64,000 nt of DNA, from the NCBI GenBank assembly GCA_020809425.1, contig JAGGDC010000001.1:1116001-1180000 (forward strand), written 5' to 3'. The stretch comes from Candidatus Synoicihabitans palmerolidicus (GTDB lineage Bacteria; Verrucomicrobiota; Verrucomicrobiia; Opitutales; Opitutaceae). Positions 9,226 through 53,387 of the stretch are shown here, one piece after another. The position numbers were made by a program, and so were the translations under genes. Under the pieces are notes generated by a model that saw only the letters and a program-made list of their open reading frames with translations, had not been told where the DNA came from and did not search any database. Numbering within the stretch: the stretch's first letter is position 1; the number at the start of each line of letters is the position of its first letter.

Positions 9226-9340
9226 GGTGCGGATAGGGCGGGAGGGCGTGGCGATGGGGTGATGGCGACGGTGTTTCCCACCAAGAAGGGACTCGGATGG
9301 CTTCGCGACCACACCGCCTGAAACGGGGAGCCGCACCCTA

Positions 9341-10379: not shown

Positions 10380-10481
10380 TAAGAGGCGGAGAGAGGCGTA
10401 ATATCCGATGCAGAACGGGGCGGTGTGGCTTTGGATTTGGATTTGCCCTTGGCGGGCGGGGTTTGCACGGTCGGCGGTTCC

Positions 10482-14058: not shown

Positions 14059-15187
14059 TCAAGAAAGGTTATTGAAAGCGATTTTGAGGGGCTTGGTTGC
14101 GAAGCTAACCGCGTTGTAGGCGTTGGCGCATAGCCTCTTTGGGACGCATGGCAGCGACTCTTTGAGTCTGCCAAGCACGGTGGTCACCAGGGATCTAATC
14201 GTTGCGAGCAGCGAAATCGGTGGCCATTTACGGGCGTAGCATCGGTCTTCACCCATGGAAGCGTCTTTGCGGTAGTGAAGAGCGTTCTCGATCTTCCAAT
14301 GTCCTGTGGCCTGAGCGAGTAGCTTGGCCGGATCGGCTTGGGTGCAATCTTGGCTGGTCACGAAAACGATGCATTGGATTTGTTTTTTACCTGTCGTGAG
14401 GTTCTCGCGCTCTCGGGTGATCCGGCCGGCCTGCGCCGCGAAGGGCCAGGTCAGGTCGGTCGGGCTGGCGTTGATCGCTGCGATGCGGCGGCGCTCGGTC
14501 CTGCCATGGCCCTTTTCCTGGGGGAAGATCTTCCTGACCTCGCTGGCATCCATCCTTTTGACGATGGCCTTGCGCAGCGCCGGGCGGTTGCCCTTCACGC
14601 TCATCAGATAATCGGCTCCATTCTTCCTGCACGATGCTGTGGGCTAGCGTCCTGCGGCAGTGTAGGGCGTCAACGGTTACGAGAGTGCCATCGATCGGAC
14701 CGATCTTGCCGAGCAGATCGACGACTGCCTGCGGCTCGTGGTCCTTTCCCCTGACGCCAAGGCTGCCGAAAAAAAATCCCTTGGGCTATGGCTGATCGCC
14801 GAGACGCTCAAGGCCTCAGGATTGGCGGGTGTCGCCGTCGCCCTGATCACCTTGCCGTCGATGGCGATGGCCTGCGGGGCGTCGTGCTGATGCTGCCGGA
14901 GCCATGTTTCCACGACTTTATCGAAGGCTTCTGGCTGCGCAGCGCAAATGGCGCGCCATAGTGTCGTATGGGAGGGGGCGACGAGCTGGCCGGTGCCGGG
15001 GGGCACGCCAGAAGCCGAAGCTGCGGCACTGCCTTTGATTCAACGCAGCGGCGAAGGCGGCGCACTGCCCCAGCGAGCGGCACCCCGCGAAGTATCCGCA
15101 AACGACCACGCCGAGCAAACCGGAGAGGCGATATCGGCGCCCCTTGCGCTCGCGCCGGTCCTCGAGCAACCCGAAGCCTTCCATTAG
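14059..15187 (-). pseudogene. ISAs1-family DDE transposase domain, degraded
   Basis: In order on the minus strand: the N-terminal DDE_Tnp_1-associated part (GLLGVVVCGYFAGCRSLGQ), the first catalytic Asp in AIAIDGKVIRAT, the second in a VTVDALHCRR segment near 14670, and the Glu-containing block GHWKIENALHYRKDASMGED, close to the ISAs1 consensus 'HW.IEN.LHW..DV.F.ED'. The protein ends at KPLKIAFNNLS. Several frame changes lie between 14600 and 15050, so no active enzyme is possible. ISAs1-type transposases are also known as H-repeat-associated proteins. Confidence 0.8.
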
Positions 15188-15298
15188 CGAGCCGATCGCC
15201 TTACCTTCGGCAAGGCGCGGATACCGCTTTTGCTACTGCTGGCAGTAGCCATGGTAGGGCTCGGGTAGCTCCTCGCGGAACAGCAGCTCCTTGAAGTC

Positions 15299-15901
15299 CT
15301 ACCGCAGTGGATACATCAGAATTGTCTTGGGCTTGCCGTGATGCTGGTAAAAATCTGCCGCTTGGCGGGCGAACCCCTGGATCGAACCTACCACCGTCCA
15401 GTTGGCGGCCTTATAGCAAGTGCCCTCGAAAAACTCCGGATCCCCGAAGGTCTCGACTGCGACAGGTTCCGAGCCAAAAGCACCACGCCAGTCTTCGCGC
15501 AGGCGTCTGAGCGCCAGCGAGAGGCTTTGGGACGCCAGATTTGGCATGGAGCGCGACGACCCAACAATCAGCAAGCGGCTGTTGGCAACGAGCAGTGCGA
15601 GGCGCTGCCTGCGCTGCCATGTTTCCCAGCCAATGCAGCTGTCGCGTGCCTTTAGATGGTAGGCTGCGGAGCTGAATGAGAGCAATGCCGCCCACTTCCC
15701 TGCCTCTTCCTCCACGTAGCGCAGCGCTTTTCCCGCCACGTTCGAACTGCGCAAATAATGGTGAGTGCGGATCAGGTCGTTCCATCGCTCTATCTCTGCT
15801 TGATCGTCGAGCAATCGAATCGTGGCATTATCCAGCAGGTATCTCTGACGGCGGTTTGGACGGGTCGTTTTCTCAAACATTTGCCGACTTTGGTCGGACA
15901 T
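15299..15901 (-). CDS. DUF4338 / DruA-like domain protein (N-terminal half of an ISAs1 fusion)
   Basis: 200 residues, open from ATG 15901 to TAG 15299. The conserved blocks RWNDLIRTHHYL, the GKWAALLSFSSAAYHL segment, CIGWETWQRRQRL, PNLASQSLSLALRRLREDW, AVETFGDPEFFEGTCYKAAN and TILMYPLR are those of DUF4338, the domain called DruA in Druantia anti-phage loci. Here it is no Druantia system, since no druB-E genes are near; it is the N-terminal half of a transposase fusion, cut off by an amber codon in place of a Lys or similar residue. The domain itself looks intact and could still be made as a separate protein. Its biochemical role is unknown. Confidence 0.75.
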   Translation of the reverse strand: MSDQSRQMFEKTTRPNRRQRYLLDNATIRLLDDQAEIERWNDLIRTHHYLRSSNVAGKALRYVEEEAGKWAALLSFSSAAYHLKARDSCIGWETWQRRQRLALLVANSRLLIVGSSRSMPNLASQSLSLALRRLREDWRGAFGSEPVAVETFGDPEFFEGTCYKAANWTVVGSIQGFARQAADFYQHHGKPKTILMYPLR

Positions 15902-15918
15902 GCCGGAAAAATATCCAT

Positions 15919-15956
15919 TGTAAATTACATATAATATTATCTACCTGTAACTTACA
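15919..15956. promoter_or_regulatory. Paired 11-bp palindromes TGTAA-N-TTACA upstream of the DUF4338 gene
   Basis: TGTAAATTACA (15919-15929) and TGTAACTTACA (15946-15956) are two copies of one palindrome with centres 27 bases apart, in a very AT-rich patch immediately before the divergent DUF4338 start (15901). Between them lies ATATAATATTAT, which can serve as a -10 element in either direction. Two equal dyads across a promoter are what a dimeric repressor operator looks like. The regulator is unknown. Confidence 0.5.
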
Positions 15957-15976
15957 TTTTATTATGAAATAGCCCT

Positions 15977-16060
15977 GCCTGCTAGGTGAGTCGGCGGGTG
16001 CACGAATGAAACCCACTAACCGACTGGCTAACATGACTTTGTTACATGCGTTTTCTGGGA
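15977..16060 (+). repeat. R element copy 1 (short, diverged)
   Basis: Shares GGTGAGTCGGCG..., GAAACCCACT.ACCGACTGG and AACAT.ACTTTGTTACATGC with the longer copies at 38983 and 43990. The stem GTCGG/CCGAC is kept. The inner stem GTGGG/CCCAC of the other copies is here shifted to GGGT/ACCC, so folding is preserved although bases changed. Only the 3' half of the unit is present. Confidence 0.6.
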
Positions 16061-16186
16061 TGAACTCGGGATCGAGGTCTGCCTCTGTGGCGCCAAAGCC
16101 CACGGCCCGCTATTTTAACGTACAAATGGGCTAATCAACACCGGCGTTGATTAGTCGGTTCGGGCGACGGTTCGGCGTGATGCGGG

Positions 16187-23576: not shown

Positions 23577-24020
23577 ATGAACATTACCACTGCCTCCATT
23601 CACGTTACGGCCCCGAAAACCGTTGTTGTTAATTTTCTCAGTGATCTGAAGACCCTGCCCGCGTGGGCAACAGAGTGTTGTCAGTCGATTGAGAACACCA
23701 CCGAAGGCTGGGTGGTGCAAACGGCCAACGGGGCATTGATGGTCGATGTCGACGCCCATGCCGCGACGGGCGTGATTGATATGAAAGTCGGACCTACGGC
23801 CGACGAAATGGGGGGCTTTCCGATTCGGGTGATCGGGATGCCGGATGGCAGCACGTTAGTCTCGTTCTGCTTCATTCAGGCGCCGGACGTATCGGATGAA
23901 GTCTACGCGATTCAATATCAGTCCTTGTTGATCGAATTACGCGGCCTGGCGGAGCGTTTCGAAGGCACGGTGCACGCCCCCCTGTCGGCATTTAATGCGG
24001 TGGAGGCCATGTTGGTCTAG
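23577..24020 (+). CDS. SRPBCC-fold ligand-binding protein, 3' end defined by an IS630 insertion
   Basis: 147 residues with the helix-grip pattern of SRPBCC/polyketide-cyclase proteins: an opening strand ASIHVTAPKTVVVNFLSDLK, then the PAWATECCQSIE turn, a series of beta strands and a long C-terminal helix (SLLIELRGLAERFEGTVHAP). Such proteins bind hydrophobic ligands or act as small cyclases or AHSA1-like factors. The stop codon TAG (24018-24020) consists of the TA target site plus the first base of the IS630 copy, so the original C-terminus may have been longer or different. It is probably co-transcribed with the WYL regulator. Confidence 0.65.
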   Translation: MNITTASIHVTAPKTVVVNFLSDLKTLPAWATECCQSIENTTEGWVVQTANGALMVDVDAHAATGVIDMKVGPTADEMGGFPIRVIGMPDGSTLVSFCFIQAPDVSDEVYAIQYQSLLIELRGLAERFEGTVHAPLSAFNAVEAMLV

Positions 24021-25033: not shown

Positions 25034-25062
25034 TTGATTCCAAGCCGGGAGAGCTTGAAAAC

Positions 25063-30572: not shown

Positions 30573-32065
30573 ATGAACACTCCGTTTCCCACGCTCGCAC
30601 CCGAAGAAGCCGCTGCAATGGTCCAGGACAACCAGACCGCTGGTTTCGGTGGCTTTACCGCCGCCGGCGCCTGCAAGGTCATACCGCTCGCCATCGCGGC
30701 CAAGGCGAAGGCCGAACACGCAGCCGGCCGGCCCTTCAAGCTGGGGGTCATTACCGGGGCGTCCACGGGTAAGTCCCTGGATGGCGCGTTGGCGGAGGCG
30801 GAGGCCATTGCGTGGCGCACGCCCTATCAGGCTGATCCGGTGCCGCGGAAATCGATCAACGCCGGTAAAACCAGTTCTTTGATTTCCACCTCTCTGCGGT
30901 TCAGCCGGCGGCGCGCAGGGGCGTGTTTTTAAAAATGGATTGGGCAATTATTGAGGCCAGTCATGTGACTGCGCAGAGGGAAATTGTACTTTCGGCAGGA
31001 GTGGGCGCGGCGAATACTTTCGCGCGTTTGGCGGACAAGATTTTGATTGAGCTTAATGCTCACCACCCCGGCGACCTCATGGGGTTTCAAGATCTTTACG
31101 AGCCGGCGGATCCGCCTTTTCGGCGTGAGATTCCGGTTTACGCGCCGACGGATCGGATTGGTGCCAGCTTCATCAAAGTCCCTCCGGAGAAGATTGCCGG
31201 TGTCGTGCTGACTGACCTGCCTGATGAGTCCGGCGGTTTCCAGGCGCCCGACGAGGTCACGAACCGAATTAGCGAGAATGTGGCCGGGTTTCTGGCCAAT
31301 GAAATCAAGATTGGGCGACTGCCGGCCTCGTTTCTGCCGCTGCAGTCGGGGGTGGGGCATATCGCCAACGCGGTGATTGGGGCGCTGGGAACAAACCCCG
31401 GAATTCCTCCGTTCATGATGTATACGGCAGTGTTGCAGGATTCGGTGGTGGACCTGTTGCAGTCTGGCAAGTGTGCCTTTGCGAGCAGTTGTTCGCTGAC
31501 TTTGAGTCCAGATCGTTTGAAGGAATTTTACGCCAATCTCGAATATTTCCGGTCGCGGGTGGTGTTGCGGCCGCAGGAAATTTCCAACAGTCTGGAAATC
31601 GTGCGACGGCTCGGGCTAATCACGATCCACACCGGCATTGAAGTGGATCTATTCGGTAATGTGAACAGCACCCACGTGATGGGGCGCGACCTGATGAACG
31701 GCATCAGGGGCTCGGGCGACTTTACCCGCAATGCGCATGTTTCCATCTACACCTGTCCGTCGATCGCGAAGCTTGGCAGCATTAGCACGATAGTGCCGTT
31801 TGTCACCCACCTCGACCACAGTGAGCACTCCGTGCAAGTCGTGGTGACCGAGCAGGGCGTAGCTGATCTGCGCGGCAAGTTTCCCCATGATCGAGCGGAG
31901 CTGATGATTGAGCAGTGTGTGCACCCGGACTACCGGGAAGCCTTGCGGGGTTATTTGGCCGCGTCCAGTCGCGGTCACGTCCAGCAGACCTTGCACAACG
32001 TCTTTGGCATGCATCTTTCGTTCCTAGAAAAAGGTGACATGCACAAGGTGGAGTGGCAGGTGTGA
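30573..32065 (+). pseudogene. Succinyl-CoA:acetate CoA-transferase (AarC-like), one frameshift
   Basis: About 497 residues. MNTPFPTLAPEEAAAMVQDN, GFGGFTAAGACKVIPLAIAA and GVITGASTGKSLDGALAEAE form the N-terminal part. After a one-base loss near 30877 (FFDFHLSAVQP region) the frame continues to the stop with NPGIPPFMMYTAVLQDSVVD and the FVTHLDHSEHSVQVVVTEQG block. Enzymes of this type replace succinyl-CoA synthetase in a modified TCA cycle. Next to korAB this suggests a route 2-oxoglutarate to succinyl-CoA to succinate, yielding acetyl-CoA and reduced ferredoxin. It is a single lesion in a homopolymer T context, so an assembly error is a fair alternative. Confidence 0.85.
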
Positions 32066-32139
32066 AGCTGCCGGGCTCCGTGGTCGGCCTGGATTGCGGA
32101 GGTGACTTCGTGATTCTTGGTCAACGAGCCGAGCGGACC

Positions 32140-32706
32140 TCAATCGGACAAGGCTGCGGTGTAGTGTCGGCGGCACATGGCGACGTAACGTTCGTTGCCG
32201 CCGATCTCGATTTGCTCGCCCTCGCGCAGGCCTTTGCCGTCGGGGCCCACGCGTAGGTTCATGGTCGCCTTGCGTCCGCAGTGGCAGATGGTTTTGATTT
32301 CAATCAGATCGTCGGCGAGAGCCAACAAGCCGGCGCTGCCTTCGAACAATTGGGCCTGGAAATCGGTGCGCAAACTGTAGCAGAGGACAGGGATATTGAG
32401 CTTGTCGGTGACTTTGGCGAGTTGCTCGACTTGGATACGAGTAAGGAATTGAGCTTCATCGACGAGCACGCAGGCCAAGCCTTCCTCGCCGTGTCTGGTG
32501 AGGATCCGGCGGTACAGGTCATCCGTGGGGGAAAAGGCGTGCGCTTCGGAGCTCAATCCGATGCGACCGAGATCGGCGCGTTGATCGACTACCGGGGCGA
32601 AGAGCATGGTGCGCATGCCGCGCTCCTGATAGTTGTAGCTCGATTGAAGAAGAACGGTGCTTTTGCCCGCATTCATCGCGGAGTAGTAAAAGTAGAGCTT
32701 GGACAC
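32140..32706 (-). CDS. tdk: Thymidine kinase
   Basis: Phosphorylates thymidine for DNA synthesis by salvage. 188 residues, intact, type II (TK1-like): P-loop [20 protein letters not shown] (catalytic Glu and Mg-binding region), lasso and zinc ligands in [14 protein letters not shown] and [11 protein letters not shown]. Start ATG 32706. It is separated by about 300 bases from the upstream CLC gene on the same strand; that gap holds a strongly structured element. In a genome losing biosynthetic genes, retention of a salvage kinase would be meaningful (inference). Confidence 0.93.
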
Positions 32707-32781
32707 GGTTACTCAGTAAGAAGGGCGCAGAGTGAAGGATGAAGTCGGAAGTGCGGAGGAGGGTAAAGAAGCCTAAGGTGC

Positions 32782-32943
32782 GTCTGGGAAATAAACCCGG
32801 CCACCGCTAACGCTCAATGAAGGAGTGAGAAAGGACACTGGGCCGGCGTTGCCTTCGGCGGCACGGGCCGCTGGCCCGCCTCCACCTCGGTCGCCTGGGC
32901 CGAGACCCCTGTCTCTCCCGCTGGCCCGGTCTATTTCCCAGAC
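32782..32943. ncRNA. Candidate structured RNA between a CLC channel gene and tdk
   Basis: Two arms of 22 bases, 32782-32803 (GTCTGGGAAATA..) and 32922-32943, are complementary at all but about two positions. They close a loop of 118 bases that itself can form GC-rich hairpins, for example GTTGCC-TTC-GGCGGC near 32852 and CTCGG...CCGAG near 32886-32904. There is no open frame of note on either strand. A single long closing stem with inner hairpins is the architecture of 6S-like and other small regulatory RNAs, but it could equally be a structured leader of tdk or a mobile repeat unit. Strand cannot be decided. Confidence 0.4.
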
Positions 32944-33004
32944 ACTCTCTCAGGTTTTCGCCTTCCTTTTATTGCGAACGTCTGACCTCCAAGATCGAAA
33001 ATGA

Positions 33005-34669
33005 TCAGTCTTTCGTGAAGAGAATTTCGGCGCGGAGAATATCGTGCAGGGTCATGAGGCCGATGGGGACGTCGTCTTCACCGCCGACGATGACGACCAT
33101 GTTGGCGGGGGATTCGATGATCTTGCCTTGCACGTCGCGGATGGTGGCGTCTCGACGGCAAGTGGCGACGTGATCGATCATGGCGTCATCGCCATGATCG
33201 ATCATGCGCTGCAAATGCTCGCGAGTGATGGTTTTGGTCGATTACCACGGGGAAACAGTCGTGATGGCTGTCCACGAGGACCTGGCGGACGGCTTCGATG
33301 GAGAGATCTTTGATGCGGACCGGGCGGAAATTGGCGGCGCGACTGACGGCGGTTTCCTGCCAGGATCGCAGGTCGCGTGGGGGCATGACTCGTTCAACGG
33401 CCTGGCCGTCCTGTTCGAGGACGACGTCGTAGAAGTTGTGTTTGGTGAATCGTTTAGCGATGACGATGCTCACCAGACCACCGACCATGAGGGCGGGAAC
33501 CATGGCGAACTCATGAGTCATTTCGAACACGATCAACAGGCCCGTCACGGGCGCACGAACCACGGCTCCGAGACACGCACACATTCCAACGACAGCGAGC
33601 GTTACATGACCGGCGGTGCTGAGCGGGTAGACCACATCGATGAGGCCAGCCATGGCAGCCCCCGCCATATCGCCAAAAAATAGGGTCGGGGCGAAGATGC
33701 CGCCCGCCGCGCCCCAACCGTAACACACCGCGGTAGCCACCAATTTGGCCACGAGTAACAGGGCGGCGCTGGACCAGGCCATTTGATCGTTCAAGGCACT
33801 GGAGAGATCTTCGTAACCCAGTCCGAACACGCCGGTGTGACCCGTGTAGAGAAATACGGTGCAGCCGATGAGCCATACGGCCAACCCACCAAGGGTGGTA
33901 CGCATCCACCGCGGCACCCGGTGGGTTTGCTTATTCCACAGGCGCAAGCCGAGAGCGAATTTCTGAAACCATACGCCGGCCAAGGCCGCGACCGCCGCAA
34001 CAAATGGAGTGGCCAGGTAGACCTGCCATTCCGGGGATCCGGCTCCTCGTAGTGTGAAAGCGGGTTGTTCGCCCCAAAAACCATGTGCCACGAGGGCTCC
34101 GACGACGGCGGCCAACAGAATCGAACCGAGCATGCGGCTGTTGAGATCACCGATGATTTCCTCGAGCACGAAGGTTACCGCGGCGATCGGGGTATTAAAT
34201 GCCGCGGCCAGGCCAGCGGCCGCGGAGGCCAGGCGACGTTTATGTTTGGCCACGCCCAGCACCCCGCTCACTTGCGAGGACAACCCGGCGGCGAGCGATC
34301 CTCCCGACCCAAGCTGTTGCCGCCGTCGACGCTCAATACGCCGGCAATAAATTTGACCCCAACGACCCGGAACGGAATTTCTCCCATGTCCTTTCAGAAG
34401 GCCAGTTTGACCTGGGGTATACCCGAACCCGCGGCGGCGGGGCAAAACGCACTCAGGAGCCAACCCGATATGGCGGAGGTTCCGCCTATGACGAGGAAGG
34501 TGCCGATCAAAAATATGGCGATGCTTTCGCGGGTGAGGCGTTGGATGCCGTGTTCGAACACGGAATGAATGCAGATGTGAAACGCCACTGCCGCTCCGCC
34601 CGCGACAAGACCAAAAATCACTGTCTGGACGATGCCGCGGGTCTTCGCGTGCATGTCGGGCCATGGCAC
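33005..34669 (-). pseudogene. CLC-type chloride channel/antiporter with CBS domains, frameshifted
   Basis: About 555 residues: N-terminal helices (GIVQTVIFGLVAGGAAVAFH), the GSGIPQVK selectivity segment, NSLGREG with the gating Glu, GAAGGIFAPTLFFGDMAGAA (GxFxP loop), and a cytoplasmic CBS pair (VRQVLVDSHHDCFPVVID, then VVIVGGEDDVPIGLMTLHDI). Frame changes lie between 34310 and 34430 and near 33235, so neither the pore nor the CBS tail is made in full. Intact relatives move Cl- or exchange it for H+ across the inner membrane. The gene is on the same strand as the methyltransferase upstream and tdk downstream. Confidence 0.85.
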
Positions 34670-34736
34670 GGGCGGGCAGGTCTAATATCAGGATGCTAGA
34701 GTTGCGGACAGGCCCGGATAAGTTTCAACGGCTTAT

Positions 34737-35372
34737 TCACGCAATTGATGCACGTCGCCAGTGGTCGGCCTGAATCAGGCCGTGGTTGAAGTGTCGGCGA
34801 TTGGAGAGGCTGAAGCCCGCATTGTGCAACATTGTATCCGGAGGCGTCAGGTGACGTGCTTCCAAGCGGGTCACCATCCGGAAGGCCCGATACATCAGCT
34901 GGTGTGCGGCGCGAGCGCGCAGCCGCTGCCAGCCGGGACGCGCCGGTAGGGTAAAGTCGGTTACCACCCAATCGGCCCGGGCGGTGGCGGCCGAGGCGAG
35001 GGGGGCGATCACGCACGCCAAAGATGCGGGGGCGAAGCAGTCCAAGACGCAATGGGTCACGATGGCATCCCAATGACCCACTGGTGGCCGCCACGAGCGC
35101 AGATCTGCCTGAACGAACTCGGTCGGTCCGATCGGCACGACGCGGCGGGCTTGATCCAACATGCGTGCGCTTGCGTCCAGCACGGTGATGGGGAGTTGGG
35201 GCCGTCGCTCGCGTAATACGGCCAAAAACCGCCCCGGACCTTCCCCGACCAGCAGCACGCGTTGCGCTCGTTCGATCACGGCCAGATGGGCGAGTCGTGC
35301 TCGTTGCAAAACGCCGCCGGCGACGGCGGCTTCCAACCAGCGGTAATGAGGCGCGAGCAAATCAAATGACAT
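34737..35372 (-). CDS. Class I SAM-dependent methyltransferase
   Basis: 211 residues, intact. Motif I is VLLVGEGPGRFLAVL (GxGxG SAM-binding loop), the acidic residue of motif II is in TVLDASARMLDQAR, and the VQADLRSW and WDAIVTHCVLDCF segments give motifs III and IV. The fold is the UbiE/Methyltransf_25 type. The C-terminal part (HQLMYRAFRMVTRLEARHLT) replaces the usual substrate-binding cap. The substrate is not predictable. Start ATG 35372 lies 26 bases after the next minus-strand gene at 35398, so the two may be one transcript. Confidence 0.8.
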   Translation of the reverse strand: MSFDLLAPHYRWLEAAVAGGVLQRARLAHLAVIERAQRVLLVGEGPGRFLAVLRERRPQLPITVLDASARMLDQARRVVPIGPTEFVQADLRSWRPPVGHWDAIVTHCVLDCFAPASLACVIAPLASAATARADWVVTDFTLPARPGWQRLRARAAHQLMYRAFRMVTRLEARHLTPPDTMLHNAGFSLSNRRHFNHGLIQADHWRRASIA

Positions 35373-35397
35373 CAGACCAAACCGGCAGAGGCGGGCG

Positions 35398-35988
35398 TCA
35401 AGTGGTGGGTTTTAAGCTGATGACCTTTTTCTTCGCGCTGTCCCGTTGCCACCAAAGCCCCGCGAGCAACCCGCCGGTCAGATAGGCGACCACGTCCCAC
35501 CAGTCGGCGGTGGCGTGGTCGACGAACCGAGGCCCGGCGACCTCGCAGAGGAAGGACCAAATGACCAAATGCAGGGTGATTTCACCCGGGGTCGGCGGAC
35601 CATCTTGGTCCCGCCATTTGAGTAGGCGTTGCACGCCCAGTACGAGCGGGAGTGCGGCCGGAATCAACAGGACATCGTTGAAGTGGTCGTGCAGAATCCC
35701 GCCGTGGACTTGCGGTTTGAGCCCCCAACGGTTGAGGGCGTAGAACGCTATGGCACTCAGGCAAAGCGCATCACGCGCGTAGCCAAACGGCTTCACAACA
35801 GTGCTAAAATAGCGATACCCGACAGCGTGGCCAGGCCGATTTTCCCAATGAGAACGATCATGGTCCCCACTGAGCGGGGTTTTACGGTCGGCGCAAGACT
35901 GGAACCTGGTAAAAAGGTGGGTAATCAAGTGGCGTGACCAGCCTATTAGGTGTTTTGCAACACGACCTCGATGGGTGGACATGCCCAT
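35398..35988 (-). CDS. Unknown membrane protein
   Basis: Not recognised. 196 residues from ATG 35988. A polar N-terminal third is followed by three or four hydrophobic segments: DALCLSAIAFYALNRWG, VLLIPAALPLVLGVQRLL, ITLHLVIWSFLCEVAG and VVAYLTGGLLAGLWW. A short basic tail (RDSAKKKVISLKP) ends it. The HGGILHDHFNDVLLIPAA stretch, with two His and Asp before a helix, and FVDHATADWWDVVAYLTGG resemble VanZ-like or DUF-type small membrane proteins, but no family can be claimed. The first 50 residues may be untranslated, with a start nearer to FGYARD. Confidence 0.45.
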   Translation of the reverse strand: MGMSTHRGRVAKHLIGWSRHLITHLFTRFQSCADRKTPLSGDHDRSHWENRPGHAVGYRYFSTVVKPFGYARDALCLSAIAFYALNRWGLKPQVHGGILHDHFNDVLLIPAALPLVLGVQRLLKWRDQDGPPTPGEITLHLVIWSFLCEVAGPRFVDHATADWWDVVAYLTGGLLAGLWWQRDSAKKKVISLKPTT

Positions 35989-36018
35989 GACGGCATGCAG
36001 GGTGCTGATCCCTTCATC

Positions 36019-36445
36019 ATGAAAAAATTGTTCAGCCTCTCATTTCTGCCCGTTAACGCTTCGCTTGGACTGCTCTTACTCCGGATTCTGGCGGGGGGGT
36101 GGCATGGCCGTGCTACACGGATGGGGTAAGTTAATGAACTTCAGTAAGATGTTTCATTCGTTCCCGGATCCGGATCCATTGGGCATATCCGCCGAGGCGA
36201 GCTACCTCTTCGCCACGGGAGTGGAGTTTATGGGCGCGCTGTTTGTGATACTGGGGCTTTTTACCCGCTTCTCCGCATTGAGCATGGTCATTACGATGGG
36301 GGTGGCCTTTTTTATTACCCATGGAGGAGCGTTGACTGGTGAGCACAGCGGCGAGATGGCGATGATTTACGGCATTGCATTTTTACCGCTGATTTTCACT
36401 GGCGCGGGAAGCTACTCGATTGATGCGAAAATAGGTAATCCGTGA
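36019..36445 (+). pseudogene. DoxX-family membrane protein, frameshifted at a G7 run
   Basis: MKKLFSLSFLPVNASLGLLL at 36019 leads, after removal of one G from the G7 run near 36093-36099, into GMAVLHGWGKLMNFSKMFHS and then three further helices (FMGALFVILGLFTRFSALSM and others) ending in YSIDAKIGNP. This is the four-helix DoxX/YqjF layout of about 142 residues, thought to act in electron transfer or redox homeostasis at the membrane. The only lesion is the homopolymer. Confidence 0.75.
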
Positions 36446-36662
36446 TCGAGGGCGGTGAATGGTTTTTAAGTTGATCCGACGCTTCGACTACGTCGGCCAG
36501 GTTTGTGTTTCGGTATCATCGACACCCTGGTGCCGAGTCAGCTGCGGAATCACCGAGCAGACGCTTGATAGTGAGCGCAGAGTGATAGTTCGCGGGAACG
36601 CGTGGTGGTGCGGAATTCGGTGTGGGGTTGTTTTCTTCGTTTAACCGCCTAGCCGTTGTTTC
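36446..36662. other. Gene-free stretch before the mannanase gene
   Basis: About 217 bases. No recognisable gene on either strand. The mannanase promoter is probably here, but no clear -35/-10 pair can be named. Confidence 0.3.
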
Positions 36663-37811
36663 ATGTCCTCTCGTTTCCGCTCGGTCGCATTTTGGTTTGG
36701 TCTGGTGGGTTGGGTGGCGAGCGCTGCTGCCGAGCCGCGTCCGCTTCCTCAGCCCGTTGATGTTGATGCCACGCCGGAGACGCGGGCGTTGTTGGCGAAT
36801 TTGCACCGCATAGGTTGGGGTACGGATACTTTCATGTTTGGGCAGGAGTTTCCGCTAAGTTACGACAAGCGCGAACTGCTGGGTTACCTTGATGTGGCGC
36901 AATCCGAGGTGAAGGACGTGGTGGGCGATCATCCGGCGGTGCATGGATCGGATGTTCATTTCCTCATCGACAAGGATAGGCATGAACGTTTTGCGCATCT
37001 CCGGGCTGCACGGAAGGCTTTCGCCGATGGAGCGATGGTCACGCTCGATTACCATTGGTTGGGACGTTATGGCGGCACGCATAATTGGCAGGAACAGGAT
37101 GCGAAAATTCTGCACCACGTGGTGACTGGCGACGACGCGACCGGCGATGTGACGTGGTTCTACGCACGGCTCGACGCAGTGTTGAAGGTGATTAATGAGG
37201 ATCTGGGATTCCCAATTGTGTTTCGCCCGTTGCACGAGATGAACGGCGATTGGTTTTGGTGGGGAAGTCTGGCCGAGGGAGGTCCGGAAACCTATGCACA
37301 AGCTTACCGCATGTTGGTCGACTACATCCGTGAACGGAGCGATTTGGTGTTGTTCTGCTGGTCGCCGGACACGGCACTGGCCACCGAATACTATCCGGGC
37401 GACGATTACGTGGATGTGATCGGCGTCGACGGCTACGGAGCGGGGAATCCGAATATTGAATACATCACCGTACCATTGATGGTCGGGCTACTCGAGCAAG
37501 TGACCGACTTCGCCGCCGAACACGGCAAGGTCGCCGCTCTCACGGAGACCGGGTATGGCACGTGGGGAGAGATTAACTACCATACCGAACGGCCGCAGTG
37601 GTGGACGCAGGATGGATTGGAGCCCATCATGGCGTCGCCCAAAGCCAAACGCATTGCCTGGGTCCTTACGTGGATCAACTCACATTGGTCGGGTCCCTAC
37701 ACGCCCCACATCGCATCGCAGGAAGCTTTCCGGTCCTTCTACGACGACCCCCGCACGCTCTTCCAGACAGACGTCGCCAGCATGAACCTCTATGTCGAAC
37801 CGACTAGATGA
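36663..37811 (+). CDS. GH26 family endo-beta-mannanase, secreted
   Basis: 382 residues with a signal peptide (MSSRFRSVAFWFGLVGWVAS then AAA before EPRPLP). The catalytic acid/base lies in FRPLHEMNGDWFWWG and the nucleophile Glu in ALTETGYGTWGE, with MFGQEFPLSYDK and VIGVDGYGAG as further GH26 landmarks. Members cleave beta-1,4-mannans in the periplasm or outside the cell. The gene is intact and has no neighbouring glycan cluster; DoxX upstream and an alpha/beta hydrolase downstream are unrelated. It is one of few extracellular functions in the window that has not decayed. Confidence 0.9.
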   Translation: MSSRFRSVAFWFGLVGWVASAAAEPRPLPQPVDVDATPETRALLANLHRIGWGTDTFMFGQEFPLSYDKRELLGYLDVAQSEVKDVVGDHPAVHGSDVHFLIDKDRHERFAHLRAARKAFADGAMVTLDYHWLGRYGGTHNWQEQDAKILHHVVTGDDATGDVTWFYARLDAVLKVINEDLGFPIVFRPLHEMNGDWFWWGSLAEGGPETYAQAYRMLVDYIRERSDLVLFCWSPDTALATEYYPGDDYVDVIGVDGYGAGNPNIEYITVPLMVGLLEQVTDFAAEHGKVAALTETGYGTWGEINYHTERPQWWTQDGLEPIMASPKAKRIAWVLTWINSHWSGPYTPHIASQEAFRSFYDDPRTLFQTDVASMNLYVEPTR

Positions 37812-37999
37812 CCGAATTCTTTTACCACCGATGGGGACCGATTAACACAGATGAAGAAGAAGTGAATGGATTTTAAGACTGGATATTTCGAATCTGATTT
37901 GAACGCCGTGCGTAGTGGTAGCGAAGCCATCGGTGTCCTTCTGTGGTTAAGCAGCAGCAGGGTGGTTGGGTCCGTGGTTAAAAATAAAATCCGTTCTGC
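37812..37999. other. Intergenic region
   Basis: 188 bases without a recognisable gene. It contains AT-rich stretches and near-repeats of ACCGATGGGGACCGATTAAC type, but no hairpin or promoter that can be defended. Confidence 0.3.
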
Positions 38000-38959
38000 A
38001 TGCCGCTGATTGAATCAACCTATACGTCACCATTCGGCTGTGCCAACGGGCATGTGCAGGCGATCGTGCCAGCGGTGTGGCGGCGGGTCCCGTCGGGGCC
38101 GATGGAGCGCGTGCGAATCGCGACCCCCGATGACGATTTTCTCGATCTCGACATCGCGGGCCGCGGCGCGGATCGCGTCGCGATTATTTCGCACGGACTC
38201 GAAGGCAGTTCGCGCGCCCCCTACATCCAAGGCATGACGCGGGCGCTGCTAAAACACGGTTGGGATGTGGGCGCGTGGAATTGGCGCGGGTGCAGCGGTG
38301 AGATGAATCGGCAGCTCCGGTTTTATCACAGTGGGGCGAGCGCAGATCTCGCGGTGGTAGCGGATCATGTCTTGACCCGTTCATCGTGGCAGCGCGTGGC
38401 ATTGGTGGGCTTCAGGCTAGGAGGGAACATGACGCTCAAGTACCTCGGGGCGCGTGGCTCATCGGTTGCTCCGCGTATCGAAGCAGCGGTGGCGTTTTCA
38501 GTGCCGTGTGACCTAGCGGCGAGTTCGGTGCGACTCGGTCATTGGAGCAACCGGCTCTATATGGCGCGTTTCATGAGAACCCTCCGACGTAAAGTGGCGG
38601 GAAAGGCTGTGCGCTATTCGACCGAGTTCAATACGACGAACCTCTCGGCGATGCGCACATTTCGGGATTTCGACGGACGCTATACGGCACCGTTACACGG
38701 TTTTGCGGGGGCGGAGGACTATTGGGATCAGTGCGGTAGCATCCGGTTTCTTGATCAGATTCGTGTACGCAGCCTATGGGTTAATGCGAGCGATGATCCT
38801 TTTCTCGCGGGAAGATATTTTCCCACGAATCTCGTTCGAAATCACACGCACCTCCATCTCAAAACTCCGCGCTATGGAGGGCACGTGGGTTTCGTGACCC
38901 TTGGCAGCGGAGGCGAATATTGGTCGGAATCCCGGGCGGTGGAGTTTCTCTCCTCCTAG
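38000..38959 (+). CDS. YheT-like alpha/beta hydrolase with the nucleophile Ser replaced by Arg
   Basis: 319 residues, open throughout. Matches the AB-hydrolase-4/YheT family: the N-terminal FGCANGHVQAIVPAVWRR, the oxyanion region ISHGLEGSSRAPYIQGM, WNWRGCSGEMNR, and the acid in LWVNASDDPFLAGR with the catalytic His in YGGHVGFVT. The nucleophile elbow should read GFSLGGN but is GFRLGGN (codon AGG at about 38410-38415). A single base change from AGC or AGT gives AGG, so the ORF is formally intact but very likely catalytically dead. The physiological substrate of YheT-type enzymes is poorly known. Confidence 0.8.
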   Translation: MPLIESTYTSPFGCANGHVQAIVPAVWRRVPSGPMERVRIATPDDDFLDLDIAGRGADRVAIISHGLEGSSRAPYIQGMTRALLKHGWDVGAWNWRGCSGEMNRQLRFYHSGASADLAVVADHVLTRSSWQRVALVGFRLGGNMTLKYLGARGSSVAPRIEAAVAFSVPCDLAASSVRLGHWSNRLYMARFMRTLRRKVAGKAVRYSTEFNTTNLSAMRTFRDFDGRYTAPLHGFAGAEDYWDQCGSIRFLDQIRVRSLWVNASDDPFLAGRYFPTNLVRNHTHLHLKTPRYGGHVGFVTLGSGGEYWSESRAVEFLSS

Positions 38960-38982
38960 TTGCAATTTAATTACCTCAGATA

Positions 38983-39164
38983 GACCTAAATTCCGAAGTT
39001 GGCTGTTACAGCAGGGAACGAAGGGCGCGAAATTGGAACGAGTACGGTCCGCCGAAGGCACCGATTCGTTCACCTGTCAGGTGAGTCGGCGTGGGCGCGT
39101 TTGAAACCCACTCCCCGACTGGATAACATAACTTTGTTACATGCGTTTTCTGATGTGAACTGCG
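38983..39164 (+). repeat. R element copy 2
   Basis: Begins ACCTAAATTCCGAAGTTGGC and is almost identical over about 182 bases to 43990-44172 (same orientation); its 3' half is shared with 15977-16060. Predicted structure: a CACCTG-T-CAGGTG palindrome, a stem AGTCGG/CCGACT with inner stem GTGGG/CCCAC and loop CGCGTTTGAAA, and a small hairpin TAACA-TAACTT-TGTTA. There is no coding content. Confidence 0.85.
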
Positions 39165-39397
39165 TTTTCTAGCGTGGATTGAGGTTGGCCCGCGAAAAAC
39201 GAACCAGCGGCAAGGCGGAGGGAGATGCGGTACGAGGATTCTCCAGAATCAACGATGGCGATGCAGCTTGGTTTTAGACCACGGTACACTCGGTAGACAC
39301 GGAATCCGCGAGTCTCGTCAGCCAGGTGGTTTTCGACAAGGCGATGAAACGGGCACCCTCTTGCCGTTGAACTTTTGATTAGTGGTGGGGGCGAATC
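39165..39397. other. Stretch between R copy 2 and the PEP-CTERM gene
   Basis: About 230 bases. On the minus strand one frame stays open from about 39360 into R copy 2 without a start codon (for example HLADETRGFRVYRVYRGL). It could be a scrap of a lost gene, but nothing is recognisable. Confidence 0.25.
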
Positions 39398-40460
39398 CTA
39401 CAGGTGAGCCGTGCGGCGGGGCCGTCGGAGCACGATTCCGAGGGCGGAAAGCACTCTACGGCGGCGAAGCCCCAAGGGCTGGGTTCGGGAACCGCGGAAA
39501 AGCTGCCGGAGGATGCGTCGAAGGCGACATGGTGCACCTCGGCGCCCGTTTGAGTGTAGTTGTTGGCCACGATCTGTCCGTTCACGTATTTACCGTTGCT
39601 GGCGAGATCCATTAACGGTGCCAAAATGCTGCCATATAAATTCGATCCGAGGTTGACCGAGCTGGAGGTCATCAGGTTGGCATCGGACACTATATTCCAC
39701 AGCAGTTGATCGCTGTTGCTACCGGAGTTGGCGTTATTGCCGGCAAACAAGTTGGTATCATCCGCGTTCAGAACGTTGATCACGTAGAACATGTCCGCGG
39801 GTACGTTGATTTTAATATTCAGACACGAAACACTGCCAAACTGACTGACGTCGTAGTCGAACACGGCGATCCCGGTATTCCGCGCGGTGTTGAAGAGCAG
39901 TTTGTCGCCCGACAGGGTTATGGTGCCATTGGCTTGAGTAGCCGCCAGAGCGGTAGAAGCGGCGCTCAGATTGGCCATTGCAGTGGCAACATTCCAAATG
40001 CCGGGGTCGGTGGTCAGGTCGGCAAACGTAGTGCTGGAGTTGTCGAGAATCAGGGAACCGCTCCCAGAAACCAGTGACCGTTGATTGGCATTGTTCCAGG
40101 TGGTGGTGTTCCCGAAGTTCGGAATGTAAGCGGTACCGTTGTTGAGCTGGTTGTTGCCGCTCACGTTGAGGTTTCCCTGCACGTACAGGCTGGGCAGTCC
40201 CTCCAGCGTGCTGCCATTCATGGCCAGTACGCTGCCGTTGTTCAGCGTGAGGTTGCCACCGCTCCGTCGGTGTGCGTGCCAGTCAGGGTCGTATCCTGAC
40301 CCGTGATAATGTTATACTGGCTGACGTAGGTGTCGAAGGTGACCACGGCCTGGTCGACGCTCATTTGGGCCCGCGCAGGGCTCGATGCGACGACGATCGC
40401 CAATAGTACTGCCGGGACCAAGGGACCAAGTAGGGTGAATTCCTCATTACGAATAGGGGG
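39398..40460 (-). pseudogene. Choice-of-anchor-A PEP-CTERM protein, frameshifted
   Basis: A signal peptide (LVPAVLLAIVVASSPARA) and MSVDQAVVTFDTYVSQYNII start the protein. The middle (GNLNVSGNNQLNNGTAYIPN, IKINVPADMFYVINVLNADD, LYGSILAPLMDLASNGKYVN, GQIVANNYTQTGAEVHH) is the choice-of-anchor-A domain. The end is VPEPSPWGFAA plus, after a frame change, VLSALGIVLRRPRRTAHL and a stop at 39398, which is a complete PEP-CTERM signal. Frame changes at about 40440, 40270 and 39450 interrupt it three times. It is the closest exosortase substrate to the exosortase gene 2 kb away, and both are broken. Confidence 0.8.
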
Positions 40461-40605
40461 GGCTGATTTTTAGTCCCAGGTCTTGTCAATATGTGACCGC
40501 GCCTAATTCGAAAATTCATCCAGCGCCCGAATGGTGTCTTTTTAATAATAGTGCCAAGTAGTGCCAAATGCAAGTCTGAAGGGAAGGCCGATGCGGTGGC
40601 TGGAT

Positions 40606-42216
40606 TCACGGATTTGGTAATGACATGCTTCCAATACGGGAGGTCAGGCAGGCCTCTAACGGGGGCTGCGAACGAACGATTCGATCGGCCTTTTCCCCGT
40701 CCTGCAGTCGCCAAGCCCAAATGGCCGTGGCGAGCTGGCTGCGCGGTGTTTTTTCGAGTCCGGCGAGGAGATGTTCTGCATTGACAGTCAACGCTCCAGG
40801 GATCGTCGGTAGGGCGCTGCCGAAACGGATCCAATCAAACACCACCGGTTCGTTTTCGGGCTGCTGGATAGCTCAACGGTCGCATAGTTCCCAAAGGGCT
40901 GTGGTCTGGCCCAGATTGAACAATGGTGCGCAGTGAAGCGTAGGCCCAAAACTCAGTCGGGTTGGCGTCGATGGTCTGCTGCAGAATCGGGACGACCCAG
41001 GTAGGTTCCTGCCAGATCGTGCCGATGCGAATCAGTGTGCGCAGAGTTGTTGGGTTCGTTTTTTCCGAAAGCGCGACCGCATCGAGCCATGTTTCGATCG
41101 CGGATTGCTCCTCCCCGAGCAGACTTTGCTGACGGGCGGCGAGAGCGAGTAGAGCCACGCCATGGTCAGCGGGACCGAGCATCCCGGAGCTGACCAGCGG
41201 GTAGGCCCTATCCGTAGGTCCAATCCGAGCGTGAGTTCGGCCGTGATCTCCCTGACCGAGCGCACTTGTTGAATCTCGGGCGGAAGGGAATCGATCCAGC
41301 GCAATGCCTCGGATTTTCGGCGTATTTCTCCCGTCCAGCGCGCCACCAAGGTGACGTCGCCGGGGGAGTTCGCGGCGGCGCTTTGCCTGACGGCGAGTAA
41401 TCGGGAAAATTCGATTCTGGTGGTATCCAGAGCATGGGTCCCCAACTTAGAGACGATCGCTTTGGCCACCTCTTGAGCATGGGCGTTGTCGAGTTGGCGG
41501 GTGGAATCCTTGAGAAGCTCAAGCGCGGCGCGCACGCGCACTTGAGGATCGCTCAGCAATTTTTCCAAGCTGGCAATGGCTTGACTGCGTTTGGCCGGAT
41601 CGCCTTGGAGGATTTGGACGGCGGCGAGGTTGAAGCGCGCCTCGCTGTTGTTGGGCTCCAGCGAAATCAATATCTCGAGGTGCTCCAGTAGCGCCTCGGT
41701 GTCCCCGAGGATTAATGCCAATGTCGCCGACACCTGATGAAAGTTCGAATCCGTCACGGCTTTCGGATTGGATACGTCCAGCGCGGTTTTGGCGGTCGCG
41801 ACTTCTCCAAAACGAATGGCTTCGGGCGCCAACGCGATTCGGGGGGCAAGACTCTGGGGAGTGAATTTGAGTACGTTCTCTCGGGCGACCACGCTATCAT
41901 GAAGATTAAGGTCCGAAAGGTAGTCCGCGATCATCTTCCACGTGTCGACATCGTTCGGTGCGAGTTGGCTCGCTCGCTGGAGACTGAGGACCAGATTGCG
42001 GTAGTCCTGCGATTCCGCGTATTCGCTGGTTTGGGCCATGGCTTTGTCGTGCCGCCAGGTCCGGAGCATCGGACGGCTCAATCGCCACGCGGGGAAGGCG
42101 ATGAGCGCGATCATTCCCAGAACCAACCAGCCACGCAGACGGCTCTGTTCGCCGGCGGATAGCCGGTTCCAGTAGTTTCTAAAAACTCTTTTCCCGTTAG
42201 CCCGACGTCGCCGCAT
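40606..42216 (-). pseudogene. TPR-rich membrane-anchored protein of the exosortase cassette, interrupted
   Basis: About 535 residues. After MRRRRANGKRVFRNYWNRLS a single membrane helix (GWLVLGMIALIAFPAWRL) anchors a long helical domain with tetratricopeptide-like pairs (NLVLSLQRASQLAPNDVDTW, LLEHLEILISLEPNNSEARF, NLAAVQILQGDPAKRSQAIA, VPILQQTIDANPTEFWAYA). Such TPR proteins commonly sit beside exosortase genes in Verrucomicrobia (recalled) and may help handle substrates. Lesions: frame changes near 41200 and 40900, and an in-frame TGA near 40875. It is divergent from the exosortase gene, with about 95 bases between the starts. Confidence 0.7.
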
Positions 42217-42310
42217 TCGATCGACGGAACAAAGCTGCGGACTATCTATCTGCAACGCCAATCGTGTTGAGAGATGGACAATCCGATTCGGGTTTTGCAT
42301 CGAAGGCGTG

Positions 42311-43854
42311 ATGTCCACGCCTGCCACGCGTCCCGATAGGCCGCCCGCCACGAGCTCGATTGAAGCGCGGTGGAGACTGGGCGCCATGCTCGTGGCATGC
42401 TGGGCTCCCTTGGTGTGGCGGTGGCGTTATGCTTGGAATCTTGATCCGGATTTGGGGCACGGTTGGGCGGTGCCATTTCTGGCGCTCTATCTGGTGTGGC
42501 AAAGTGCCGCGTCGTGGTCGGGTGCTCATTATCCGACGAGACGTGAACTCCGCGGAGGACTCATTTTATGGAGCACCGGTTTGGCGGGTGCATTCTTGAC
42601 TGTTCCGGTGCTGGAGGCGAATCCCCTCTGGCCCACGGTGCAGTGGATAGGGGCGGGTTGGGCGATGTTGGGGAGTTTGGGTGCGTTGATGGTGTGGCGA
42701 GGGAAATCCGCGGTGGTGCGGTTTGTGATTCCCGTGCTGTTCATGCACACTGCGATCGCATGGCCGGCATTGGTCCGGGTTCCCGTGGTGACGACGTTGA
42801 TGCAAACCAATGCAGAAATCGCGGCCGAACTTCTGTCGCTTTTTGGTCAACCGGCGGTCGTGCGCGGTAATATCATCGAAGTGGATACAGGATTCATCGG
42901 GGTCGACGACGCCTGCAGCGGAATGCGTTAGTTACAGGCCGTTTAGATGTTTGCGCTCTTTTTCGAGGAACTCCATCGGCTGGACGTTGGAACTCGATTA
43001 AAATTGGTGGGGGTCGCGTTGTTGGCGGCTTGCGGAGGTAACCTCGTGCGCACCCTTTTTCTGGCCTGGCAAATTGGTCGAGCGGGGGCTGCAGCCGGCT
43101 CGGCCTGGCACGATCCGGCGGGCGTTATAGTCCTCCTCTTCACTTCCGCGGTGGTGTTCCTGTATTCGCAGCGATGTGCTAGTCGGGAGCCGGCGCCAAG
43201 GGACCGGATTTCGTCCACGACCGACGGGGACGTAGCTGGCCGCGAGCTTGGCTGCGCCGAGCGGTTATGGTCGCATGGGGCGAGCACTCGAACCGGGGAG
43301 CGCATGCATTGGCAGGTAACGGCATCGCGGAGTGAAAAATGGAAACCGGTAGAGACTCCCCAAGGTGTGTTTGACCTTTTACGGTGTTCCCGTGCGGAGC
43401 AATATGAGGATCGCAGCCCCACCACGGCACCGGTGCGATGGCGATGCTGATCAGTTGGGAACAGGACCGGCAGGCCTTGAGTGGGATCGTCGACGCGCAT
43501 GATCCCTCCCTATGCATGCCGGCGATCGGTGGTGTGCTCGACCGTCGGATGGAGCCGGTGATGGTTTCGGTGCAGGGACGAGACCTGAGATTTGACGCCT
43601 ATGTTTTTGTGACTCACGGCCGTCGCCAGTATGTTTTTAATGCCGTGTGGGATGCCACCCGCAACGGCAGGGTCACCGCGACTGGGTTGTCCGAAGGGAT
43701 TGTATCAAAGCGGCTGCGACGCGTGTTGGAACGGAGGCGCTTCACTGACTTGGACCGCGTGGTGATGGTCGGTCAGGATGCAGTCGATGAAGTGGCGGCA
43801 AGACGGTGGCTGCAACGCGAGGTGCCGCTCCTGTTGAGCTTGCCGTTTCCCTAA
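42311..43854 (+). pseudogene. Exosortase with C-terminal EpsI-like domain, two amber codons after the catalytic Cys
   Basis: Multi-helix transpeptidase that cleaves PEP-CTERM signals. The N-terminal part has helices with LDPDLGHGWAVPFLALYLVW and QTNAEIAAELLSLFGQPAVV, then the catalytic block VDTGFIGVDDACSGMR. The next codons are TAG (42929-42931), four sense codons, then TAG (42944-42946), where relatives read SLQ.VLM. The frame then goes on through LVGVALLAACGGNLVRTLFL (with the catalytic Arg) and SAWHDPAGVIVLLF (catalytic His). A periplasmic EpsI-like tail (AHDPSLCMPAIGG) follows after one more frame change near 43420. Without read-through, the Cys is separated from its Arg and His partners. 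Confidence 0.8.
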
Positions 43855-43989
43855 CAAATAATCAGAGGTAGGGGAGAATGGCACCCTGCCGTTAGCTAGC
43901 GACATCGAGGCGCTTGTCAGTTTGTCACGCTGACTCGTTGAGGCGTTTCTCGCTGAGTAATGAGATTCGGCAGCAGACAATCCCGATTA

Positions 43990-44172
43990 ACCTAAATTCC
44001 GAAGTTGGCTGTTACAGCAGGGAACGAAGGGCGCGAAATTGGAACCAGTTACGGTCCGTCGGAGGCACCGATTCGTTCACCTGTCAGGTGAGTCGGCGTG
44101 GGCGCGTTTGAAACCCACTCACCGACTGGATAACATAACTTTTTTATATGCGGCTCGTTATGTGAACTGCGT
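43990..44172 (+). repeat. R element copy 3
   Basis: Same unit and orientation as 38983-39164, with about a dozen differences, mostly outside the stems. Together the two copies bracket the PEP-CTERM, TPR and exosortase genes as direct repeats 5 kb apart. Confidence 0.85.
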
Positions 44173-44589
44173 GTTATAGGATTACTTCACGATGAGTCGC
44201 GATTGCTGACCCGGGATAGGAATCTTGGGCGTGGCTTTGTCTCCGTCACCACAAAGGTGAGGTTCACCGATCTCCGATATTTTGCGGGCGATAGGGTTGG
44301 TTACGTCGGTGGAGAGACGGTGGCTAATTCTGGTTTCGTCAATCCGGTACCGAGGTTATTACCCGGCTGGGGCGTCTTCTTTGTGACCGGTAGTGAAAGG
44401 TGATCTTGCGATCGACCGATGCGGTTAAGTGGGCCGTTGGGGGGGGGGGGAGAATGGAGCCAAGCGTGCACCCGGACACGTCGTTTCTCACGCATGTGGG
44501 GGGGGGGGGGAGCTAATGGAGAAGGGATCGACTGTGGGGCGGATTGCGGCAGTCGGAAAATAGGCGACGCTCGCCGGGCCCCGGAGCCG
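44173..44589. repeat. Gene-poor region with two long G tracts
   Basis: G12 at 44439-44450 and G13 at 44498-44510, 47 bases apart, between R copy 3 and the 3' end of the chemoreceptor gene. Reading frames across the tracts (plus strand) give Gly runs in otherwise unrecognisable peptides. On the minus strand they lie behind the chemoreceptor stop. Confidence 0.8.
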
Positions 44590-45785: not shown

Positions 45786-45789
45786 CTAG

Positions 45790-47259: not shown

Positions 47260-47325
47260 CTAAGGAGGGGAATCTCCGCTGTTGCCAATATGGGGGAATA
47301 CGAAACGCTGTGCTGTTTCCCAGCT

Positions 47326-51804: not shown

Positions 51805-51806
51805 AA

Positions 51807-53302: not shown

Positions 53303-53387
53303 CTAGAGTGGGTGGCATACCCTAATTTATATGCTGCGAACTAAATTTTATAGCACTAATATACAGGATTGTTCTTACTTATAGTTC

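What the first reader, a model, noticed from the sequence alone, without database searches (positions are those of the whole stretch)
38983..44172. Exosortase cassette bracketed by direct copies of a structured repeat
R copies 2 and 3 (about 182 bp, same orientation) flank exactly the PEP-CTERM protein, the TPR protein and the exosortase gene. A shorter, diverged copy at 15977 keeps the same stems with changed bases, which implies selection on folding. A mobile or recombination-active repeat unit around a surface-sorting cassette would be new to me. It could be a non-autonomous element, a single-strand-folding recombination site, or a small RNA.
Basis: partly seen in the sequence, partly recalled or inferred. 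Interest (0 to 1): 0.7.

Follow-up and report, generated by a model that had tools for sequence, protein, structure and literature searches.

The report
Jumping-DNA repeats beside exosortase genes
The repeat on both sides of the surface-protein sorting genes is an ordinary short, gene-less transposon scattered through the whole genome, so the pairing looks incidental; what is unusual is that almost every copy points the same way relative to the local strand bias of the DNA.

Summary
In detail: two 189-190 bp copies of R (38985-39173, 43991-44180; same strand) flank a PEP-CTERM/TPR/exosortase cassette, and an 89-bp piece lies at 15978-16066. The interpretation mostly fails. R is a MITE family with 73 R groups in this genome (G000), with imperfect terminal inverted repeats and a 5-bp WTNAW target duplication (>=4/5 match in 21 of 38 copies; 7.8 expected). 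A congener (G001) has 14 copies. Close R pairs are as frequent as chance predicts. The same cassette occurs without R in G001 (two units) and G003 (three). R2 and R3 are sister copies in separate target sites, so a compound element is unlikely; R-R recombination at R2, a synteny breakpoint, stays possible. The 89-bp copy is R cut by an ISAs1/DruA-type IS. Covariation is nearly nil. R is a landing pad: 27 of 30 IS110-family copies sit at one R site. This closely matches QMITE2/IS1111 of Coxiella burnetii. Unexpected and unexplained: R's orientation agrees with local GC skew in 72 of 73 groups, whereas four other ISs here show no clear bias and the congener's R shows none (5 of 14). New member of a known kind.

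The parts
38985..39173 (+). R copy 2: complete MITE (189 bp), CCTAAATTCCG...GTTTTCTAGC
38980..38984 (.). left 5-bp flank of R2 (ATAGA); right flank 39174-39178 is GTGGA; only 3 of 5 match
43991..44180 (+). R copy 3: complete MITE (190 bp), sister copy of R2 (93% identical)
43986..43990 (.). left 5-bp flank of R3 (ATTAA); right flank 44181-44185 is ATTAC; 4 of 5 match
15978..16066 (+). R copy 1: right part of an R (model columns 93-181), cut at its central palindrome by an ISAs1/DruA-type IS
14059..15975 (-). degraded ISAs1-type IS carrying a DruA-like ORF (15299-15901) and an ISAs1 transposase remnant (14059-14604); ends approximate
39379..40221 (-). choice-of-anchor A / PEP-CTERM surface protein, C-terminus frame-shifted
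40361..42387 (-). TPR protein gene, in several ORF pieces (one 601-aa ORF in G001)
42308..43854 (+). exosortase (EpsH family) gene, split over three ORFs (42308-42931, 42947-43450, 43438-43854); one 531-aa ORF in G001
30923..38959 (.). block collinear with G003 (the part from 32140 also seen collinear with G001); collinearity ends after the hydrolase 38000-38959, i.e. at R2

Best explanation
R is a ~190-bp non-autonomous transposable element (MITE) that was inserted many times into intergenic WTNAW sites with 5-bp target duplication, and has since diverged in G000. R2 and R3 are two sister copies that happen to lie either side of the cassette, itself a conserved trio present without R in congeners. 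Shown: copy number, ends, target duplications, a related family in a congener, the cassette without R, ISs inserted into R at fixed sites. Inferred: movement in trans by a transposase that was not found; R2 and R3 as independent insertions (R2's duplication is degraded); a later role of R-R recombination in rearranging the genome.
For: 73 R groups in G000. Flanks match >=4/5 in 21 of 38 copies with both ends versus 7.8 in shuffles (maximum 18 of 10,000 shuffles), consensus WTNAW. In G001 14 of 14 copies keep both ends and 10 of 14 show a perfect 5-bp duplication, and one copy folds as a near full-length hairpin (z -5.08). 26 of 26 uninterrupted copies were placed between predicted genes (one overlapped a called ORF; crude gene caller). 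Cassette without R: two units in G001 (L203), three in G003 (L204). Chance expects 6.2 intervals <=5 kb and 5 are seen.
Against: No autonomous parent was found in G000 or G001: the IS1380-like ISs in G000 have other ends, and all 14 G001 copies are short. R2's own duplication matches only 3 of 5. R2 and R3 are sisters and the closest-spaced pair among the 44 longer copies compared, and R2 lies at a synteny breakpoint, which chance alone does not predict. The MITE reading does not explain the 72-of-73 polarity.
Confidence: 0.88

Rival explanations
1. Homologous recombination between dispersed R copies brought the cassette here: R2 (and perhaps R3) mark recombination joints rather than two plain insertions.
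For: Collinearity with G001 and G003 ends at the hydrolase next to R2. R2's flanks do not match well. Two pairs of other R copies have reciprocally exchanged flanks (2 pairs among 17 mismatched copies, permutation mean 0.07, P 0.0006). In G000 the cassette is missing beside enolase, where G001 and G003 carry it.
Against: R3's flanks match 4 of 5. The sequence downstream of the hydrolase differs between G001 and G003 too, so this spot is variable without R. No partner R for R2 was identified. The flank test was made after seeing the two pairs.
Confidence: 0.25
2. R2-cassette-R3 is a compound element that moved as one unit.
For: Direct sister copies on both sides.
Against: The outer flanks of the pair (ATAGA, ATTAC) share only 2 of 5 bases; R3 matches its own inner flank better. 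The cassette exists without R elsewhere.
Confidence: 0.04
3. R is a structured RNA or a single-strand-folding recombination site maintained by selection on its fold.
For: Near full-length hairpin in a G001 copy (z -5.08); internal palindromes; strict polarity.
Against: R2 is no better than shuffles. Covariation term about zero; 2 of 29 and 1 of 22 pairs with double changes. No Rfam match in the window. Many copies are interrupted by ISs.
Confidence: 0.05
4. On the polarity (compatible with the MITE reading): R inserts coupled to the replication fork (as Tn7/TnsE or IS200/IS605 do), or copies in the disfavoured orientation are lost.
For: 72 of 73 groups agree with local GC skew, also with ISs masked; 12 of 12 copies with a perfect target duplication; 25 of 26 uninterrupted copies using flanks 0.4-1.4 kb away. 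Other ISs in the same DNA show no clear bias: 5/2, 7/11, 1/3, 8/9.
Against: The congener's R shows no bias (5 of 14). GC skew was used as a stand-in for replication direction; origin and terminus were not located. A FtsK-type polar motif was not supported.
Confidence: 0.5

Closest known systems
QMITE2 of Coxiella burnetii and its hot-spot use by IS1111 (PMC5896051, passages; PMC10969869, passages)
   Same: ~190-bp MITE, 78 copies, most of them not full-length, mainly in 3' flanks of genes; 20 of 21 IS1111 (IS110-family group) copies sit in it; IS1111-carrying copies flank a functional gene block (icm/dot); a QMITE2 inversion that left no direct repeats is reported.
   Different: R has a 5-bp WTNAW duplication (QMITE2 7-9 bp), different ends, a second IS type at its centre, and in G000 near-total polarity with GC skew. 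The passages I saw say QMITE2 orientations are drawn on circular figures; whether they are biased I could not see.
IS110-family insertion into REP sequences and transposon TIRs (PMC1525189 abstract; PMC11208160 and PMC11187229 passages)
   Same: An IS110-family IS lands at one oriented site in a dispersed palindromic repeat.
   Different: Here the target is a subterminal stretch of a MITE; the bridge/seek RNA was not identified.
IS1380 family / ISEcp1 (recalled)
   Same: From memory, ends CCTA.../...GGAATTTAGG and a 5-bp duplication look alike.
   Different: IS1380-type ISs in G000 have other ends; no parent shown. A lead only.
Tn7/TnsE and IS200/IS605 fork-directed insertion (PMC5371812, passages)
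   Same: Orientation follows replication direction.
   Different: R has TIRs and duplications and no transposase; the bias is absent in the congener.

Membership tests
Prokaryotic MITE | short (<500 bp), multicopy, without a transposase gene | tested here: met
   ~190 bp; 73 groups in G000, 14 copies in G001
Prokaryotic MITE | terminal inverted repeats | tested here: met
   imperfect: CCTAAATTCCGAAGTTGG at one end, CCTAGAAAACGCAGTTCAC at the other; a G001 copy folds end to end, z -5.08
Prokaryotic MITE | target-site duplication | tested here: met
   5 bp; 21 of 38 copies >=4/5 versus 7.8 expected; 10 of 14 perfect in G001
Prokaryotic MITE | intergenic location | tested here: met
   26 uninterrupted copies placed between predicted genes, one overlapping a called ORF; crude gene caller
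Prokaryotic MITE | related autonomous IS with the same ends | tested here: not met
   none found in G000 or G001 with the patterns used; parents are often absent (general knowledge), so this lowers the assignment to an IS family, not the MITE reading
Prokaryotic MITE | mobilised in trans | not testable with these tools
   needs an experiment
IS1380-derived element | ends shared with an IS1380 IS | tested here: not met
   IS1380-type ISs in G000 begin CTTAGCCGTAACGATGCAGT; the ISEcp1 resemblance is recalled only
IS200/IS605 (single-strand) derivative | no target duplication, no TIRs | tested here: not met
   R has both
Compound transposon around the cassette | matching outer duplications | tested here: not met
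   outer flanks ATAGA and ATTAC
Structured non-coding RNA | covarying stems | tested here: not met
   2 of 29 and 1 of 22 pairs, covariation term about zero
IS110 family (the IS inside R) | DEDD + Transposase_20 recombinase and a long non-coding end | tested here: met
   PF01548 E 3.7e-20 and PF02371 E 1.3e-16 for L112:3961-4917; about 285 bp between the IS end and the start codon

The most novel reading that the evidence does not exclude
In this lineage R inserts only in one orientation relative to the replication fork, or wrong-way copies are purged because R has gained a polar role in chromosome maintenance; and because R is the preferred landing site of an IS110-family IS, it imposes that polarity on the IS as well.
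Probability: 0.4. Interest if true: 0.6.

Novelty: new member of a known kind. Interest (0 to 1): 0.35.

Why it matters
It removes a false lead (a mobile exosortase cassette) and replaces it with a clear case of a MITE serving as landing pad for two IS families and as a likely substrate for rearrangement in an IS-rich genome. The polarity of R, near-total here and absent in a sister species with the same element family, would make a direct test possible of whether a MITE's orientation is set at insertion or by later selection.

Tried and rejected
R as the end of the DruA/ISAs1 element (my first guess): rejected, the IS lies inside R at model columns 92-101. R as the end of the 1.44-kb IS110 element: rejected, the IS lies inside R; R parts differ between copies more than the IS parts do. 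IS1380-like ISs as the parent: different ends. A FtsK/KOPS-like polar motif in R as the cause of polarity: GAAGGG and GGGNAGGG are not polar beyond base composition in 0.52 Mb of oriented G000 DNA. Gene direction as the cause: mixed contexts (13 convergent, 8, 3 and 2 of 26). Literature searches for a printed account of R; 'MITE', 'miniature', 'palindrom', 'IS110', 'exosortase' and 'PEP-CTERM' do not occur in the main text of PMC8636102.

Full report
The observation. Two copies of R lie in the same orientation on either side of a PEP-CTERM/TPR/exosortase cassette, and an 89-bp piece lies at 15978-16066. By the end consensus R2 is 38985-39173 and R3 43991-44180. This is not chance similarity. 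No Rfam family and no tRNA is found in the window.

R is a genome-wide family. BLAST scored 40 copies (114 candidates); patterns for one end, the core and the other end gave 55, 58 and 21 places. After fetching the surroundings, a profile search over 331,610 bp gave 92 pieces that I grouped into 73 R groups; two of these (C1:48195 and C1:49433) are probably halves of one copy, and the profile was built from 21 of the copies. Intervals of 5 kb or less between R groups: 5 seen (one of them between those two halves), 6.2 expected (2-11). So a 5-kb R-R interval needs no special explanation.

R is a transposable element without a gene. Oriented copies share the ends CCTAAATTCCGAAGTTGG... and ...AACTGCGTTTTCTAGG, imperfect inverted repeats of one another. 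The 5 bp outside the ends are WTNAW and match each other in >=4 of 5 positions in 21 of 38 copies with both ends, against 7.8 in 10,000 shuffles (maximum 18). A species of the same genus, G001 (one contig, 5.93 Mb), has 14 relatives, all short, at 67-79% identity over the longer matches; 10 of 14 have a perfect 5-bp duplication. R was found by BLAST in 2 of 57 genomes (G000, G001); the other six congeners had none at that sensitivity. One G001 copy folds almost end to end (z -5.08); R2 does not beat shuffles. No autonomous parent was found.

Folding. Over 20 G000 copies RNAalifold gives 29 pairs, 2 with a double change, covariation term +0.65; over 18 G000 and 10 G001 copies it gives 22 pairs, 1 with a double change, term -0.07. 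The three window copies alone show no convincing compensation (my reading). Selection on folding is not supported.

The piece at 15978. It matches R model columns 93-181 and abuts the end of a degraded ISAs1-type IS that carries a DruA-like ORF (PF14236, E 1.8e-22; NF033564 E 3.9e-19, 69 bits, just under its cut-off of 70). The same IS ends follow R column ~101 at 14 R groups by my reading of the junctions, and three further groups carry R pieces on both sides of that point; the duplicated stretch is about 9 bp of R's central palindrome. So this copy is R cut by an IS, not a variant with its own meaning.

A second landing site. A 1.25-kb IS with an IS110-family recombinase (PF01548, PF02371) sits between R columns 27 and 33. 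R parts differ between the carrying copies more than the IS parts do, so the IS came into existing R copies. Of 30 IS110 places with a fetched locus, 26 have R at the left end, 1 at the right end only, and 3 have no R but partly R-like flanks. A third IS, with a DDE_Tnp_1/DUF4277 transposase, lies inside one R on C3.

The cassette. The trio PEP-CTERM(-), TPR(-), exosortase(+) occurs in G001 as two units and in G003 as three, near an RlmI-like gene (my reading of the ORF) and enolase, with no R there: the 14 R places of G001 lie elsewhere and G003 has none by BLAST. Identity to the window is modest (first exosortase piece 48-52%), so orthology of any one unit is not established. In G000 enolase is on C3 beside the gene that in G001 lies between the units (DUF4097-like, name recalled), with no cassette. 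The block left of R2 is collinear with G003 from 30923 and with G001 over the stretch fetched (32140-38959), and collinearity ends at the hydrolase next to R2. What follows the hydrolase also differs between G001 and G003. R2 and R3 are each other's closest relatives (93.1%; next 89.9% and 88.3%) among the 44 longer copies compared. R3's flanks match 4 of 5, R2's 3 of 5. I read this as two insertions of one subfamily, with R-R recombination at R2 possible. Among the 17 copies with poorly matching flanks, two pairs have exactly exchanged flanks (C1:1479315 with C3:480466; C1:2180188 with C3:515917; permutation mean 0.07, P 0.0006). This test was made after noticing them, but it fits R-R recombination in this genome.

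Polarity. The strand of R agrees with the sign of the GC skew of the surrounding few kb in 72 of 73 groups, also with all ISs masked, in 12 of 12 copies with a perfect duplication, and in 25 of 26 uninterrupted copies when only DNA 0.4-1.4 kb away is used; AT skew shows nothing (11 of 26). The groups are not all independent, since rearrangements can carry R along. Other multi-copy ISs in the fetched DNA agree/disagree 5/2, 7/11, 1/3 and 8/9; one IS has only 2 copies (2/0); IS110 copies (28 of 28 opposite) inherit R's orientation; IS1380-like copies are all opposite (8 hits, 6 distinct places, some within a shared duplication), too few to interpret. Sampling shows G000's C1 positive from 0.12 to 1.2 Mb and negative from 1.35 Mb on, and C3-C5 negative, so most of the agreement is at replichore scale, with local exceptions (C1:62089, C1:221061, C1:637618) where R and local skew are both reversed, as inversions would give. 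In G001 only 5 of 14 agree. I have no tested mechanism; fork-coupled insertion and loss of wrong-way copies both remain.

Identity of the genome. Ten contigs and about 4.3-4.4 Mb, with G+C of 55-62% in the sampled stretches, fit 'Candidatus Synoicihabitans palmerolidicus' (10 contigs, 4.3 Mbp, 58.7% G+C; PMC8636102, passages); this is inference, no tool named the genome.

Known precedent. QMITE2 of Coxiella burnetii (~190 bp, 78 copies) is the target of 20 of 21 IS1111 copies, and IS1111-carrying QMITE2 copies flank the icm/dot region (PMC5896051 and PMC10969869, passages). IS110-family targeting of REPs is established (PMC1525189 abstract, PMC11208160 and PMC11187229 passages), and orientation following replication is known for Tn7/TnsE and IS200/IS605 (PMC5371812, passages). 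R is therefore a new family of a known kind; its near-total polarity is the one feature that I did not see described for a MITE in what I searched and read.

Noticed in passing
window 42308-43854, 40361-42387, 39379-40221: All three cassette genes are split by frame breaks here but are single ORFs in G001: either a decaying cassette or indel errors in the assembly.
   Followed up: partly
window 874-2655 and 49982-51773 (inverted), 9338-10500 and 24017-25034, 45786-47269 and 51803-53305: Three other multi-copy, IS-like repeats; used as orientation controls (agree/disagree with GC skew 7/11, 5/2, 2/0).
   Followed up: partly
L015:1665-1949, L112:3674-3960: About 285-bp non-coding left end of the IS110 element, the usual place of a bridge RNA; it contains GAACAGAAG, resembling the R target TTACAGAAG. 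Guide loops were not worked out.
   Followed up: no
window 14059-15975 and R groups at model column ~101: An ISAs1-type IS with a DruA-like companion ORF inserts repeatedly into the centre of R's palindrome with about 9 bp duplicated; DruA is otherwise known from the Druantia defence system.
   Followed up: partly
L203, L204: Exosortase/TPR/PEP-CTERM units are arranged as tandem arrays of two (G001) and three (G003), each unit with its own diverged exosortase.
   Followed up: no
G000 C6:43172-44386, C5:165530-166564, C4:253002-253742, C1:98473, 534849, 768065: IS1380-like copies all point opposite to local GC skew (6 distinct places scored); too few and partly duplicated, but as one-sided as R.
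   Followed up: partly
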